Shown piece by piece: positions 10,031-64,000 of a stretch of 64,000 nt of DNA. The DNA comes from Pseudomonadales bacterium (GTDB taxonomy: Bacteria > Pseudomonadota > Gammaproteobacteria > Pseudomonadales > Pseudohongiellaceae). Each line of letters opens with the position of its first letter. Within the stretch, counting starts at the first letter, position 1. The translations under genes and the position numbers were made by a program. The notes below the pieces were generated by a model. That model was not told the DNA's origin. It made no database searches and saw only the letters and a program-made list of their open reading frames with translations. The stretch covers positions 86,846 through 150,845 of the forward strand of contig JAJEGU010000041.1 in NCBI GenBank assembly GCA_022819645.1, written 5' to 3'.

Positions 10031-10139
10031 GGACAAATCCCGCTGCATTTGCATCCGGCAATTCTCATTATGGCAATGGGCGCGCTCACATCGGTGATCC
10101 TGCGCGCAGGCGCGGGCTCTCATCGCGTGGCCACTGCAA

Positions 10140-10224
10140 GGGAAGCTCTGATCAAGTCAGAGCTTCCCTGCGGCACATGGAAGATAATGAAAAACTCCAC
10201 GGATGGAGTTTTTCAGAGAATACC
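10140..10224 (+). repeat. Multi-hairpin repeat family 1, short form (HP1 + HP5, middle modules missing)
   Basis: GGGAAGCTCTGA-TCAAG-TCAGAGCTTCCC then TGCGGCACATGGAAG then GAAAAACTCCA-CGGA-TGGAGTTTTTC. Confidence 0.85.
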
Positions 10225-10275
10225 AGGAGATTCTGCGACTGCGCTTCGCTTCTTATCGGCTGCGCCGCCCGGGCC

Positions 10276-12549
10276 TCACCCCAGTTTCTCCAGCAGCTTT
10301 TGCTGAACCCCGGCTTCGCCGGGCTGGTTGGCGGTGAGCGGCAGGTATTCGCCGTCGGACTGGAGTTCCCAGCTTTGCACCCGCTCTTCGAGGTAGAGGT
10401 CTAGTTCGTCGACCACCCGCTTGGCGAGTTTGGGGTTGAGGATGGGAAAGCAGACTTCGATGCGGTTGGAGAGGTTGCGCTCCATCCAGTCGGCGCTGGA
10501 ACAGTAGACGCCGGGCTCGGAATTGCGGAAGCAATAGACCCGGGAATGTTCGAGGAAGCGACCGACGATGGAGACCACGCGGATATTCTCGCTGATGCGG
10601 GGCAGGCCGGGGCGCAGGCAGCAGATGCCGCGCACCACCAGGTCGATCTTCACCCCCGCCCGGGAAGCCGAATACAGCGCCCGGATCATTTGCGGGTCGG
10701 TAAGCGAATTCATCTTGGCCCTGATATAGGCGGGCTTGCCGGCCCTGGCGGCGCGCTTTTCCGCGTCGATCATCCTGATCATGGCCTTGCGCAGCCGGAA
10801 GGGCGCGTGAATCAGCAGCCGCGGCTGGATTTTCTTGCCCATGCCGGTGATCTGCTGGAACACCTTGTGCACGTCGGCGCAGATCGTTTCCTCCGCGGTG
10901 AGCAGGCTGTAGTCGGTGTACAGCAGCGAGTTCTTGCGGTGGTAGTTGCCCGTGCCGAGATGGGCGTAGCGCTTGAGCCCGCCGTTCTCCCGGCGCACGA
11001 AGAGCAACATCTTGGCGTGGGTCTTGTAGCCGAGCACGCCATACACCACCACCGCGCCGGATTCCTGCAGGATGCTGGCGAACTCGATATTCTCCTCTTC
11101 GTCAAAACGCGCCCGCAATTCGATCACCACGGTCACTTCCTTGCCCTTGTGGGCCGCTTCGGCGAGGGCTTCCACGAGTTCCGAGGATTCGTTGGTGCGG
11201 TACAGGGTCTGCTTGATCGACAGCACCGAAGGATCCTTGGCCGCCTCCCGCACCCACTGGATGATGGGCAGGAAGGACTGGAAGGGATGCAACAGCAACT
11301 GGTCCTCCTTGCCCACCGCGCTGAAGATATCCTGGCGCTTGCCGGCAAGCGCCGGCGGCAGCCCCGGCGAGAATTTGGGAAAGTGCAGCTCGGGCCGGTC
11401 GATCATGCCGAACAGGGCCACGAGCCGCTGCAGATTCACCGGGCCGTCGAGTTCAAACAGTTCGCTCTTGGCGAGGTCGAAACGGTCGAGCAGGAAATGG
11501 GTGAGCCGTTCCGGGCAGCCGCTGTCCACCTCAAGTTTGGTGGCCGCGCCAAAGCGGCGGCTGTGCAGCTTGTTGCGCAGCGCCGTCGCCACATCCTCCA
11601 CTTCCACATTGGACATTTCCAGATCGGCATTGCGGGTCACGCGGAACTGATGGCAGGCGGTGACTTCCATTCCGGGAAAGAACTCGCCCACGAATTCATG
11701 AATGATGGACGAAAGGAAAACGAAATTGTCGCCTTCCGGCGCGAATTCCGGGGGAATCTTGATCAGCCGCGGCAGGGAGCGGGGCGCCGGCACAATGGCC
11801 AGCCCGCTTTCCCGGCCGAATGCGTCCTTGCCTTCCAGCGACAGGATGAAGTTCAGGCTCTTGTTCACCAGGCGCGGAAAGGGGTGGGCCGGGTCGAGCC
11901 CGAGCGGGCTGATGACGGGAACCACTTCGTTGTCAAAATAGCCCTTGGCCCATTTCGCCAGTTTGGCGTTCCAGTCCTGGCGGCGGATGAAACGGATATT
12001 CTCCTGGGCCAGCGAGGGGAACAGATCCTCATTGAGAATGCGGTACTGCTCGTTCAGCGCCGCCCGCACCTGCTCGTGAATCTGGTTGAGAATCTGTTCG
12101 GGATACTTGCCGTCCGGGTCGGGCTTCTGCATGTCGTACTGGAGGCGCTTCTTCAGCCCGGACACGCGGATTTCAAAGAATTCGTCCAGATTGGAACTGA
12201 AAATCAGCAGGAACATCAGCCGCTCAAGCAGCGGATGCTCCCGGTTGCTCGCCTGGGAGAGCACCCGCAGATTGAACTTGAAATAGCTCAGCTCGCGGTT
12301 CTCGAAATAGCCGCCATGGCTCAGGTCGATGTCCTCGCCCTTGCCGAGATCATCGGTATGCAGATTGTCCAGCCCTTCGCCGGGATGTTCCGCCTCATTG
12401 GAAACAAGCTGCAAAGCTGGCATGGCGTCCGCCACGGTCATGTCTGGTCTCGCATTTCCTCCCATCCGGCGGGACATACTAGCACCATCGGGGCAGTCTC
12501 CTGAAATTTCCAAGGACTTCACGACTTCACAGGACATCCATCCGGGCAA
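10276..12549 (-). CDS. ppk1: Polyphosphate kinase 1 (start may be internal)
   Basis: 757 aa; ENRELSYFKFNLRVL..., SIKQTLYRTNESSELVEALAEAAHKGKEVTVVIELRARFDEE, RYAHLGTGNYHRKNSLLYTDYSLLTA. Confidence 0.96.
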   Translation of the reverse strand: MPGWMSCEVVKSLEISGDCPDGASMSRRMGGNARPDMTVADAMPALQLVSNEAEHPGEGLDNLHTDDLGKGEDIDLSHGGYFENRELSYFKFNLRVLSQASNREHPLLERLMFLLIFSSNLDEFFEIRVSGLKKRLQYDMQKPDPDGKYPEQILNQIHEQVRAALNEQYRILNEDLFPSLAQENIRFIRRQDWNAKLAKWAKGYFDNEVVPVISPLGLDPAHPFPRLVNKSLNFILSLEGKDAFGRESGLAIVPAPRSLPRLIKIPPEFAPEGDNFVFLSSIIHEFVGEFFPGMEVTACHQFRVTRNADLEMSNVEVEDVATALRNKLHSRRFGAATKLEVDSGCPERLTHFLLDRFDLAKSELFELDGPVNLQRLVALFGMIDRPELHFPKFSPGLPPALAGKRQDIFSAVGKEDQLLLHPFQSFLPIIQWVREAAKDPSVLSIKQTLYRTNESSELVEALAEAAHKGKEVTVVIELRARFDEEENIEFASILQESGAVVVYGVLGYKTHAKMLLFVRRENGGLKRYAHLGTGNYHRKNSLLYTDYSLLTAEETICADVHKVFQQITGMGKKIQPRLLIHAPFRLRKAMIRMIDAEKRAARAGKPAYIRAKMNSLTDPQMIRALYSASRAGVKIDLVVRGICCLRPGLPRISENIRVVSIVGRFLEHSRVYCFRNSEPGVYCSSADWMERNLSNRIEVCFPILNPKLAKRVVDELDLYLEERVQSWELQSDGEYLPLTANQPGEAGVQQKLLEKLG

Positions 12550-17632: not shown

Positions 17633-18438
17633 ACGGCGGGGAATTCAGTGAACTCAATCCGGATGCGGACGGCGTAAGGCCCGAGCCCTGCCTGGAAACG
17701 CGCAATCTCAGCCTGCGCTATGCCGGCAACCGGCGCGCCCTGAACAAGGTCAGGCTGACGATTCCCCGGCAAAGGGTGACCGCGCTGATCGGGCCGAGCG
17801 GCTGCGGCAAGACCAGCCTGCTGCGCTGCTTCAACCGGCTCAATGATCTGGTGGATGATTGCGTGATCACCGGCAGGGTGCGGCTTGATGGCAAGAATAT
17901 CTATGCCGCCAAGGTCGATGTGACCGAGTTGCGGCGACGGGTGGGGATGGTGTTCCAGAAACCCAATCCCTTTCCCAAGTCGATCTACGAAAATGTTGCC
18001 TTTGGCCTGCGCATCCGCGGCATCAAATCGCGCCGCCGGCTCGATGAAATCGTGCAGGAATCGCTCAGCGCCGCGGCGCTCTGGGACGAAGTCAAGGACC
18101 GCCTGCACAAGAGCGCCCTGGAGCTTTCCGGCGGCCAGCAGCAGCGCCTGGTCATTGCCCGCACCCTGGCGGTTGCGCCCGAAGTCTTGCTGCTCGATGA
18201 ATCCGCCTCGGCGCTGGACCCGATTTCAACCCTGAAAATCGAGGAACTGATCAGCGAACTGAAAAAGAACTACACTATCGTCATCGTCACCCATAATCTG
18301 CAACAGGCGGCCCGGGTCGCGGACTACACAGCCTTCATGGACATGGGCGAACTGGTGGAGTTCGATACCACAGCCAGAATCTTCACCAACCCGGTAAAAC
18401 GCCGCACAGAAGAGTATGTAACTGGTAGGTATGGGTGA
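17629..18438 (+). CDS. pstB: Phosphate ABC transporter ATP-binding protein
   Basis: Walker [10 protein letters not shown]; signature [61 protein letters not shown]. Confidence 0.95.
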
Positions 18439-18461
18439 GGCCCGGTCGGCGCAGCCGATGA

Positions 18462-18580
18462 GAAGCGCAGCTTCTCAAGGGCCGAACGGCTCGCCATGGG
18501 CGAGGGCAAGCGTTTACGAAGCGCAGCTTCGTGCGCAGTCCCGAGCGGCGCCGGGCTATGCTCGGCGGCTGGACTGGCGA
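18462..18580 (+). repeat. Two-hairpin repeat family 2, with variant arms
   Basis: GAGAAGCGCAGCTTCTC and CGAAGCGCAGCTTCG hairpins followed by GGCGCCGGGCTATGCTCGGCGGCTGGAC. Confidence 0.6.
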
Positions 18581-18670
18581 GATGTCAATTTCAATACGAC
18601 GCCCCTTGAGACCAAATCCGTTCAGATGCACAATGCCGCCCAACCCAATCCCGCAACCAAGCCAAGCAAA

Positions 18671-32168: not shown

Positions 32169-32230
32169 GGGAAGCTCTGATCCAGTCAGAGCTTCCCTGC
32201 GGCACATGGAAGTGCCACCGAATTCGATGG
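32169..32230 (+). repeat. Multi-hairpin repeat family 1, 5' modules (HP1, HP2, half of HP3)
   Basis: GGGAAGCTCTGA-TCCAG-TCAGAGCTTCCC, GCGGCACATGGAAGTGCCACC, GAATTCGATGG. Confidence 0.8.
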
Positions 32231-32312
32231 GTGAAGACAAGCGTTTTCGAAGCGCAGCTTCGAGCGCGGCCGGAACGGCGCAGGGTTATGCTCTGCGACT
32301 GGAGGGAAATAC
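32231..32312 (+). repeat. Two-hairpin repeat family 2, fused directly to family 1 modules
   Basis: GTGAAGACAAGCGTTTTCGAAGCGCAGCTTCGAGCGCGGCCGGAACGGCGCAGGGTTATGCTCTGCGACTGG. Confidence 0.7.
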
Positions 32313-32828
32313 CTGGGCATTTTGTTTCCGGCGGGCCAGGCAACAGATACTGTAATCGTAAGGATTCTCGGTGTCGCTGCCGAAGTCCCGCCGGGAAATC
32401 TCTTTCCATTCTGTCTCGATGAATCCTTCGAGCCGGGTGTCGCCGGCGATGTTGGCGTGGATTCTGGTGAGGTGGAACCGGTTCGCCCGGGGCAGGGCCA
32501 GGCGGTACAACTCGGCGCCGCCGATGACGAAAGCCTGTTCGGCGCCGTCAATGGCGGCGATGCTTTCCGCAAGACGCAGGGCGGCTTCCAGGGAGTCCTG
32601 CACCCGCACGCCTTCGGCTTCGTAGTCCGCCCGCCGGCTGACAACGATATTGCTGCGCCCCGGCAAGGGCCTGCCGATGGACTCGAAAGTCTTGCGGCCC
32701 ATGATGATGCTGTGCCCCATGGTGGTGCGGCGGAAGTGGCGCAGATCCTCCGGCAGGCGCCAGGGCAGGGCGTTGTTGTTGCCGATGATGCCATTGCGCG
32801 CCATGGCGCAGATCAGGGCAAGTTGCAT
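32286..32828 (-). CDS. folA: Dihydrofolate reductase
   Basis: MQLALICAMARNGIIGNNNALPWRLPEDLRHFRRTTMGHSIIMGRKTFESIGRPLPGRSNIVVSR; AFVIGGAELYRLAL. Confidence 0.95.
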   Translation of the reverse strand: MQLALICAMARNGIIGNNNALPWRLPEDLRHFRRTTMGHSIIMGRKTFESIGRPLPGRSNIVVSRRADYEAEGVRVQDSLEAALRLAESIAAIDGAEQAFVIGGAELYRLALPRANRFHLTRIHANIAGDTRLEGFIETEWKEISRRDFGSDTENPYDYSICCLARRKQNAQVFPSSRRA

Positions 32829-35474: not shown

Positions 35475-36299
35475 ATGTGCCTGATCATTATTGCCCATCG
35501 CATGTCGCCGGACTACCCGCTCGTGCTGGCGGCCAATCGCGACGAGTTCTTTTCCCGGCCCACGAAGCAGGCCCATGAGTGGCCTGATGCGGCGATTATC
35601 GCCGGCAGGGACCTGCGCGCCGGGGGAACCTGGCTGGGGGTTGGCCGGGGAGGGCGCTTCGCCGCGGTAACCAATATCCGGGAACCCGATGGAAATGGGG
35701 CGGGCAAGCGCTCCCGGGGCGAATTGCCGCTTGGATTTCTGTTCGGCGACGAGACACCCGAAGAGTATCTTGCGGGGCGTTCGGCTGTCTTTGGGGAATA
35801 CGCCGGATTCAATCTGCTGGTGGGCGATGTGGATTCGGTTTGCCATGCCAGCAATCGCTCGCCGGGGATTCACACACTCGAACGGGGAATTTACGGCCTT
35901 TCCAACGGCGCGCCCGACTCGAACTGGCCCAAGGTGCTGCGCGGAAAAGACAAGATGGCGGAAATTTTTTCCGGCGATGCCGCAATAGACGCTGACGCGC
36001 TTATCGCCCGGATGCGCGACGAGCGGCGGGCGGGAGAGTCCGAGCTGCCGGAAACCGGGATTCCGGATACGCAGGAAAAGTGGCTGTCCTCCATGTTCAT
36101 CCCCGCGGGAGAAGGAAACTACGGCACTCGCTGCATCAGCGCATTCATCCGCCGGGGCGATGGCGCCTGTGAGTTTAGCGAGCAGAATTTCTCCGCCAAT
36201 GCCGAATGCGCCGGTCGCCATGACTTTGCATTTTCCTTGCCGCGGTTCGCGGCCTCCTCTGCCCTGAAAGGGACAAGCACTCTTTCCGCAGTCGGCTGA
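35475..36299 (+). CDS. NRDE (TANGO2-like) family protein
   Basis: MCLIIIAHRMSPDYPLVLAANRDEFFSRPTKQAHEW; GRDLRAGGTWLGVGRGGRFAAVTNIRE. Confidence 0.9.
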   Translation: MCLIIIAHRMSPDYPLVLAANRDEFFSRPTKQAHEWPDAAIIAGRDLRAGGTWLGVGRGGRFAAVTNIREPDGNGAGKRSRGELPLGFLFGDETPEEYLAGRSAVFGEYAGFNLLVGDVDSVCHASNRSPGIHTLERGIYGLSNGAPDSNWPKVLRGKDKMAEIFSGDAAIDADALIARMRDERRAGESELPETGIPDTQEKWLSSMFIPAGEGNYGTRCISAFIRRGDGACEFSEQNFSANAECAGRHDFAFSLPRFAASSALKGTSTLSAVG

Positions 36300-36435
36300 T
36301 CAGAGCTTCCCTGCGGCACATGGAAGTGCCGCCGAATTCGATGGCGTAAGCCATTGAATTCGTAAGCAAAACAAAACCACGCTTTTGTTTTGCGATAATG
36401 AAAAATTCCAAGGAGGGAATTTTTCAGAGAATACC
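36297..36435 (+). repeat. Multi-hairpin repeat family 1, HP2-HP5 (truncated HP1), between convergent genes
   Basis: GCGGCACATGGAAGTGCCGC; GAATTCGATGGCGTAAGCCATTGAATTC; GCAAAACAAAACCACGCTTTTGTTTTGC (36366-36393); GAAAAATTCC...GGAATTTTTC (36400-36425). Confidence 0.9.
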
Positions 36436-51324: not shown

Positions 51325-51402
51325 CGCAAACGATTCCCGCGGCAGACGCCTGTGATGCGTTTGCTGCGACTGCGTGCGGAATGACGGGGTGTTTCCAGCG
51401 CA

Positions 51403-51472
51403 GCAAAACAAAACCATGCTTTTGTTTTGCGATAATGAAAAACTCCACGGATGGAGTTTTCCAGGGAATACC
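51403..51472 (+). repeat. Multi-hairpin repeat family 1, HP4 + HP5 only, between convergent genes
   Basis: GCAAAACAAAACCATGCTTTTGTTTTGC and GAAAAACTCCACGGATGGAGTTTTCC. Confidence 0.85.
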
Positions 51473-51478
51473 TGGGAG

Positions 51479-63662: not shown

Positions 63663-63779
63663 ATGACACAGTCCCGTTCACAAATCGTCCAGCCTGAACG
63701 CAGCCGCTACCACTACTGCGTCGCCCGTTGCGCGCGCCGGGCCTGGGGCCGTGACGAGGTCCTCCGGCGCTGGAACTGA
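63663..63779 (+). pseudogene. N-terminal remnant of a RAYT/IS200-like (Y1) transposase
   Basis: MTQSRSQIVQPERSRYHYCVARCARRAWGRDEVLRRWN, resembling PYYHCVSRCVRRAFLCG at the start of REP-associated transposases. Confidence 0.5.
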
Positions 63780-63855
63780 TGCCGTTTCGCGGAGGATTTG
63801 CCGAATTCCGGATCAGGTCCTGTGCTAGCATATCGCGGCGCAGGGGAATGATTTA

Positions 63856-64000
63856 GGGAAGCTCTGATCAAGTTAGAGCTTCCCTGCGGCACATGGAAGT
63901 GCCGCCGAATTCGATGGCGTAAGCCATTGAATTCGGGAGCAAAACAAAACCACGCTTTTGTTTTGCGATAATGAAAAACTCCACGGATGGAGTTTTTCAG
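63856..64000 (+). repeat. Multi-hairpin repeat family 1, all five hairpins (runs to the window end)
   Basis: GGGAAGCTCTGATCAAGTTAGAGCTTCCC; GCGGCACATGGAAGTGCCGC; GAATTCGATGGCGTAAGCCATTGAATTC; GCAAAACAAAACCACGCTTTTGTTTTGC; GAAAAACTCCACGGATGGAGTTTTTC. Confidence 0.92.

What the first reader, a model, noticed from the sequence alone, without database searches (positions are those of the whole stretch)
63856..64000. Previously unnamed-looking intergenic repeat made of five consecutive hairpins
The copy at the window end contains five back-to-back hairpins (12-bp GGGAAGCTCTGA, 7-bp GCGGCAC, EcoRI-flanked GAATTC..ATGGC/GCCAT..GAATTC, 11-bp GCAAAACAAAA, 11-bp GAAAAACTCCA). Other copies carry subsets: 10140 (HP1+HP5), 32169 (HP1-HP3'), 36297 (HP2-HP5), 51403 (HP4+HP5). 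A modular architecture of this kind is unlike simple REP/BIME pairs.
Basis: partly seen in the sequence, partly recalled or inferred. Interest (0 to 1): 0.7.

Follow-up and report, generated by a model that had tools for sequence, protein, structure and literature searches.

The report
Mobile repeat with CsrA-type RNA hairpins
The repeat is a small jumping DNA element of an uncultured Pseudohongiella-type marine bacterium, present about 108 times in its genome, and its transcript would fold into five hairpins, two of which look exactly like docking sites for the global RNA-binding regulator CsrA; a DNA element that scatters such sites through a genome would be a new way to rewire or dilute that regulator.

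Summary
The sequence at 63857-64000 is the start of a 151-bp non-coding element (the contig ends inside its tail). About 108 whole or partial copies lie in the 3.1-Mb genome, mostly 94-99% identical where long. It is a miniature transposable element (MITE): 4-bp YTAR target duplications, precise empty sites in relatives, and a left end identical over 15 bp to one end of a decayed IS5-family insertion sequence in the same genome. What is unusual is the cargo. All five stems are maintained, four with compensatory changes, and the loops of HP2 and HP5 keep CANGGANG, the recognition motif of CsrA/RsmA. The N positions changed 48 times while the twelve fixed positions changed 5 times. A covariance model finds the same five-hairpin order, with unrelated stem letters and again GGA loops in HP2 and HP5, in 13 genera of the order, partly inside another MITE with different ends. 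Every element-bearing genome tested has one CsrA gene. I infer that the element spreads CsrA sites into transcripts, often just after a stop codon. Binding, expression and effect are untested. I found no published description.

The parts
63853..63856 (+). Left copy of the 4-bp target duplication (TTAG); the right copy lies beyond the contig end
   Evidence: Sequence; YTAR duplications in 23 of 45 testable own copies against 6.9 expected
63857..64000 (+). 151-bp MITE, full-length type, truncated 7 bp before its right end by the contig end
63857..63883 (+). HP1: left terminal sequence GGAAGCTCTGATCAAG with its inverted copy; the first 15 bp equal one end of a decayed IS5-family element
63887..63904 (+). 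HP2: CGGCAC-AUGGAA-GUGCCG, CsrA/RsmA-type hairpin; CANGGANG at 63892-63899
63905..63936 (+). HP3: long stem with one G.U pair (kept in 34 of 41 aligned copies), GNRA tetraloop GUAA; takes the ~72-bp insert in some copies
63939..63966 (+). HP4: 11-bp A/T-rich stem GCAAAACAAAA/TTTTGTTTTGC
63972..63999 (+). HP5: GAAAAACUCC-ACGGAU-GGAGUUUUUC, second CsrA/RsmA-type hairpin; CANGGANG at 63982-63989
10141..10223 (+). 83-bp internally deleted copy (HP1 + part of HP2 + HP5)
32169..32315 (+). Copy with HP1, HP2, left arm of HP3, then the ~72-bp hairpin insert and an AATACC-like end (right limit approximate)
36297..36435 (+). Left-truncated copy (right arm of HP1 + HP2-HP5), right limit approximate
51402..51473 (+). 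Left-truncated copy (HP4 + HP5), right limit approximate

Best explanation
A non-autonomous transposable element (MITE) with IS5-type ends carries a conserved five-hairpin RNA module. Shown: it inserted at YTAR targets, copied itself to about 100 places, and its stems are preserved by compensatory change while the apical loops of HP2 and HP5 are held to CANGGANG. Inferred: when the + strand is transcribed, usually by read-through from the gene it follows, HP2 and HP5 each present a GGA hexaloop to CsrA/RsmA. Depending on place this would titrate CsrA (a dispersed sponge of the CsrB/RsmZ kind) or put the host transcript under CsrA control. The subset copies are deletion and insertion derivatives. 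The module is older than this MITE, because other genera of the order carry it, some with other transposon ends.
For: Mobility: TSD in 23/45 copies against 6.9 by shuffling, maximum 14 in 2000; exact single-target empty sites in relatives for 151-, 99- and other forms, e.g. C83:9645 and C71:4248 at 100% identity over 76 bp, C84:75623, C26:2074; IS5-family transposase remnant (NF033581, E 6e-52) flanked by CTAG, one end GGAAGCTCTGATCAA identical to the MITE left end. RNA module: 10 pairs and 35 cells changed on both sides against 3.0 and 6.4 in shuffles, 0/500. CsrA motif: in 73 distinct copies the N positions changed 17, 9, 15 and 7 times, the twelve fixed positions 5 times in all, permutation 1/1820. 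Loops fit the published sites: ANGGAN hexaloop, AC/GU closing pairs, SELEX consensus RUACARGGAUGU (PMC7652899). Wider module: model R1 matches 23 of 392 genomes in 13 genera; GGA loops in HP2 29/37 and HP5 25/37, HP1 and HP3 0/37, HP4 2/37; 480 doubly changed cells against 142. With the stem fixed and the loop free, about 18 of about 66 hairpins outside this genome are ANGGAN, about 0.5 expected (counted by hand). CsrA is single copy in all 10 element-bearing genomes. Stop codon at the junction: sense 30, antisense 10 in the genus, p = 0.002.
Against: No binding, expression or phenotype data. HP5 has an 11-bp stem, whereas SELEX ligands mostly had four or fewer contiguous pairs. No promoter- or terminator-like site in the one copy scanned. 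The sense bias is not seen in distant loci (7 versus 11, limits uncertain) and may partly be target-orientation preference (TTAG 9, CTAA 4 away from stop codons). Alignment A2 is fitted to the model, and model hits were selected partly by their loops. Fitch counts rest on a weakly resolved tree. No intact transposase of this type was found in any of the ten genomes, and the right end (GTATTCTCTGA) matches the left only loosely.
Confidence: 0.65

Rival explanations
1. An ordinary IS5-derived MITE whose hairpins have no function beyond transposition or chance; GGA loops are inherited letters.
For: Copies are young and similar; TSDs, empty sites and IS ends are conclusive; internally deleted forms lacking HP2-HP4 exist at many sites.
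Against: N positions of both loops are among the fastest columns while GGA is fixed; compensatory change in four stems; the same loop motif in the same hairpins with unrelated stems in other genera; the IS remnant does not contain the module.
Confidence: 0.15
2. A 3'-end element: bidirectional terminator, RNase III or exonuclease-blocking hairpins (as proposed for REP/BIME and NEMIS), placed after stop codons.
For: Sits directly after stop codons in sense 30:10; very stable hairpins; HP5 has A- and U-rich arms.
Against: The terminator scan found none; end protection does not explain invariant GGA with free N positions or the restriction of GGA to HP2 and HP5.
Confidence: 0.15
3. Hairpins are kept perfect by template-switch correction of quasipalindromes or gene conversion between copies, not by selection on RNA.
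For: The process makes compensatory changes without selection; many near-identical copies could convert each other (general knowledge, not tested here).
Against: HP3 keeps a non-Watson-Crick G.U pair in 34 of 41 copies, which correction would remove; loops, which correction cannot fix, are the most constrained part at GGA.
Confidence: 0.05

Closest known systems
IS5-family MITEs (non-autonomous elements with IS ends and YTAR target duplications)
   Same: Short, non-coding, multicopy, 4-bp YTAR duplication, left end equals an IS5-family end, precise empty sites
   Different: Carries a covarying five-hairpin RNA module with two CsrA-type loops; right end only loosely matches the left; no intact helper transposase seen
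CsrB/CsrC/RsmX/Y/Z CsrA-sequestering small RNAs
   Same: Several hairpins with CAGGA(U/A/C)G- or ANGGAN-type loops (motif from PMC7652899)
   Different: Two sites per unit, about 100 dispersed mobile units, no own promoter seen, no Rfam match
TwoAYGGAY (RF01731), predicted CsrA-binding RNA
   Same: Two hairpins with AYGGAY-type loops (PMC4333381)
   Different: No Rfam match even at relaxed thresholds; not reported as a transposable repeat in the papers read
REP/BIME with RAYT transposases
   Same: Intergenic palindromic repeats near gene 3' ends
   Different: Here target duplications and IS5-type ends; five different hairpins in a fixed order
BOX, RUP, NEMIS/Correia (recalled from memory)
   Same: MITE-like intergenic repeats that form RNA hairpins; BOX is composite
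   Different: Different sequences and hosts; CsrA-type loops not known to me for these

Membership tests
IS5-family MITE | 4-bp YTAR target-site duplication | tested here: met
   23/45 identical against 6.9 expected; CTAG and TTAG dominate
IS5-family MITE | Ends shared with an IS5-family insertion sequence | tested here: met
   Left end identical over 15 bp to one end of the IS remnant in C42; the right end is weaker
IS5-family MITE | Precise empty sites in relatives | tested here: met
IS5-family MITE | Movement in trans by that transposase | not testable with these tools
   Only decayed transposase copies found, in 2 of 10 genomes
CsrA-sequestering sRNA (CsrB/RsmZ type) | Several GGA-in-loop hairpins | tested here: met
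   HP2 and HP5
CsrA-sequestering sRNA (CsrB/RsmZ type) | Own promoter and terminator, expressed as an sRNA | tested here: inconclusive
   No consensus sites in the one copy scanned; no expression data
CsrA-sequestering sRNA (CsrB/RsmZ type) | Binds and titrates CsrA | not testable with these tools
   Only the presence of CsrA was tested
TwoAYGGAY RF01731 or another Rfam family | Covariance-model score above gathering | tested here: not met
   best is ivy-DE, 26.2 bits against a threshold of 41.4
REP/BIME | No target duplication; single-strand hairpin mobilised by a RAYT (definition from memory) | tested here: not met
   Target duplications found; RAYT association itself not searched

The most novel reading that the evidence does not exclude
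A class of mobile elements, older than any one transposon family, that disperses CsrA/RsmA-binding RNA hairpins through genomes of the order Pseudomonadales, giving each insertion site CsrA-responsive transcripts and the cell a distributed CsrA sponge of more than 100 sites.
Probability: 0.4. Interest if true: 0.88.

Novelty: new variant of a known kind. Interest (0 to 1): 0.74.

Why it matters
CsrA/RsmA controls large sets of genes, and its known antagonists are single-locus small RNAs. A transposable element that carries two CsrA-type hairpins would show how a global post-transcriptional network can be rewired or diluted by transposition, a bacterial counterpart of transposons that spread regulatory sites in eukaryotes. 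It gives a directly testable prediction: CsrA pull-down should recover these repeats. It also suggests re-examining other bacterial hairpin repeats for protein-binding loops instead of treating them only as terminators or junk.

Tried and rejected
Free modular assembly: rejected, since the forms are deletions, truncations and nested inserts of one unit. REP/RAYT: rejected by target duplications. Internal promoter (extended -10-like TGCGATAAT between HP4 and HP5): rejected, because columns 112-113 vary and the scan finds none. Known RNA family: none reaches threshold. Phage or plasmid origin: no hit. Origin of the core from the IS: the IS remnant lacks it. Orientation bias as strong evidence: downgraded, not seen in distant loci. 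The first transposase search (PF01609) mostly hit other IS families; only the C42 element has matching ends.

Full report
WHAT IS THERE. The window is the right end of contig C27 of a 3.1-Mb, 85-contig genome. Related public records are Pseudomonadales MAGs and an uncultured Pseudohongiella chromosome, OX638341.1 (same length as G135). The five hairpins are real, and the folding energy is 11 standard deviations beyond shuffled sequence. The contig ends inside the element, as do many other contigs of this assembly, presumably because near-identical copies break short-read assembly. Pattern searches find 68 HP1, 73 HP4 and 66 HP5 sites and none in reversed controls. They merge into 108 clusters, which I fetched with flanks.

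IT IS A TRANSPOSABLE ELEMENT. With all copies aligned, the unit is GGAAGCTCTGATCAAG...TTTTTCAGAGAATAC, 151 bp, flanked by a 4-bp duplication of the form YTAR. In 45 testable own copies 23 duplications are identical; shuffled pairs give 6.9 on average and never more than 14 in 2000 trials. Joined flanks match relatives as uninterrupted single targets, for example C83:9645 in G097 and C71:4248 in G095 with 76 of 76 bases identical, and C84:75623 and C26:2074 at about 96-99%. A decayed insertion sequence in contig C42, also between CTAG and CTAG, has ends GGAACCTCTGATCAAG and GGAAGCTCTGATCAAC. Its transposase fragment belongs to the IS5 family (NF033581, E 6e-52; DUF772 + DDE_Tnp_1). Related remnants with similar ends occur in G098 and in C84. 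No intact transposase of this type was found in ten element-bearing genomes, two of them single-contig, so present activity is not shown; loss from assemblies or use of another helper is possible.

THE 'MODULES'. Of 47 own copies with both ends, 21 are 151 bp, seven 99 bp (HP2-HP3 deleted) and five 83 bp, with a few of 223-224 bp. The long ones carry about 72 bp of a different hairpin repeat inside the HP3 loop or the HP5 loop. The 99-bp form joins ...AGAGCTTC to GGGAGC..., where TTC is shared by both deletion ends, and its copies carry different linker letters, which suggests repeated deletion between short repeats at hairpin feet (sequence reading; inference). At one site a relative has the HP1-HP3 part in full where this genome has the 99-bp form, with the same junction (L051 against L151). 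At another site the relative lacks the HP3 insert (L061 against L067). Most 99-bp copies tested sit at sites empty in relatives, so short forms either moved as such or shrank after insertion.

DISTRIBUTION. By DNA similarity the element occurs in 10 of 137 genomes of the family, all in one genus. It is absent from the phage and plasmid collections.

THE CARGO. Seventy-three distinct full-length copies from several genomes were aligned. Stems vary by compensatory change: HP2 C-G to U-A, HP3 A-U to G-C and U-A, HP5 U-A to C-G and A-U to C-G. On a 41-sequence alignment 10 pairs and 35 cells are changed on both sides, against 3.0 and 6.4 in shuffles (0/500), and at most 3 pairs and 4 cells when partners are slid. 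HP4 has no double change. The loops tell more. HP2 reads CA-N-GGA-N-G with N1 = T, G, A or C and N2 mostly A or T; HP5 reads CA-N-GGA-N-G with N1 = C, T, G or A and N2 = T, G or A. On a tree built without these columns the four N positions changed 17, 9, 15 and 7 times; the twelve fixed positions changed 5 times together; the permutation result is 1 in 1820. This is the pattern of a CsrA/RsmA site. The review PMC7652899 gives the SELEX consensus RUACARGGAUGU, GGA in a six-base loop with the upstream AC pairing with the downstream GU, an ANGGAN loop in the RsmE structure with variable N, and repeated CAGGA(U/A/C)G in CsrB. HP2 is ACAUGGAAGU and in some species UACACGGAUGUA. HP3 has a GNRA loop and a common G.U pair on the same strand. 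All ten element-bearing genomes have a single CsrA gene.

THE MODULE IS WIDER THAN THIS MITE. A covariance model built from the 41 sequences finds matches in 23 of 392 genomes of the order, in 13 genera, with E-values down to 1e-19 outside the genus. Stem letters are largely unrelated, but the order of hairpins and the GGA loops of HP2 and HP5 recur: 29 of 37 and 25 of 37 respectively, with 0, 0 and 2 of 37 for HP1, HP3 and HP4. Pair counts on these sequences give 480 doubly changed cells against 142 in shuffles and at most 111 when slid. This alignment is fitted to the model and the hits were selected by it, so the numbers lean towards the structure. A less biased check fixes only the stem GCGGCAC/GTGCCGC and leaves the loop free. 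Outside this genome I count about 66 sites, of which about 18 have ANGGAN loops where about 0.5 would be expected; this genome has 60 sites, and the few of them listed are all ANGGAN (the listing is partial for large counts). In G207 and G428, of other families, the module sits in a MITE with other ends (CAG.TGTTGAA...TCAACAACCTG) but again YTAR duplications, three of six exact and three with one difference. None of these sequences matches Rfam. The IS remnant of this genome does not contain the module, so it was acquired, not inherited from the IS.

HOW IT LIKELY WORKS. Inferred chain: insertion by an IS5-type transposase at YTAR, a target that often includes a stop codon; transcription of the + strand by read-through; display of two GGA hexaloops that bind CsrA. 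In the genus, a coding frame ends exactly at the junction 30 times on the sense side and 10 times on the antisense side (p = 0.002; own genome 13:4, others 17:6). This fits selection for the + strand, but the same table hints at a target-orientation preference, and distant loci show no bias (7:11), so I give it little weight. With about 60 intact HP2 and 66 HP5 sites in one genome the total could titrate CsrA (a sponge); single copies in leaders or 3' UTRs could also act in cis. I cannot separate these. Evidence against is listed in the Best explanation section; the most serious points are the long stem of HP5, the lack of expression data, and the lack of any binding test.

NOVELTY. MITEs with IS5 ends are known, and CsrA-binding small RNAs are known. 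Ten full-text searches of open papers gave no report of a MITE that carries CsrA-type hairpins. Subscription papers were not searchable. I therefore call it a new variant of a known kind; if binding is shown it would deserve more.

Noticed in passing
window about 18430-18600, with related copies at about 40 places (loci L174-L203): A second family of multi-hairpin repeats with core GGCAAGCGTTTWCGAAGCGCAGCTTCG...GAGCTATGCTC; its 72-75 bp core is also found inside the HP3 or HP5 loop of some copies of the reported element, as if hairpin loops were its insertion target or a shared cassette.
   Followed up: partly
window 10100-10300 and flanks of several own copies (L095, L150, L125): Flanking sequences such as GAATTCCTRCGGCGCAGGCTCCT occur tens of times (56-68 hits among fetched loci): a further dispersed repeat into or beside which the element inserted.
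   Followed up: no
window 63664-63780: A 38-codon ORF MTQSRSQIVQPERSRYHYCVARCARRAWGRDEVLRRWN that by eye resembles the N-terminus of a Y1/RAYT-type transposase, truncated; no Pfam match.
   Followed up: partly
G000 contig C14:43726-43814 (L077): A hybrid copy in which HP5 is followed by the right arm of HP1 (TCAGAGCTTCCC) and then another element end, suggesting nested insertion or recombination through the shared TCAGAG.
   Followed up: no
L213 element, Rfam RF02999: Weak sub-threshold similarity (26.2 bits, E 0.006) of HP1-HP2 to the Rfam family ivy-DE, which also has a GUACAGGGAGUAC hairpin; ivy-DE may be another GGA-loop RNA.
   Followed up: no
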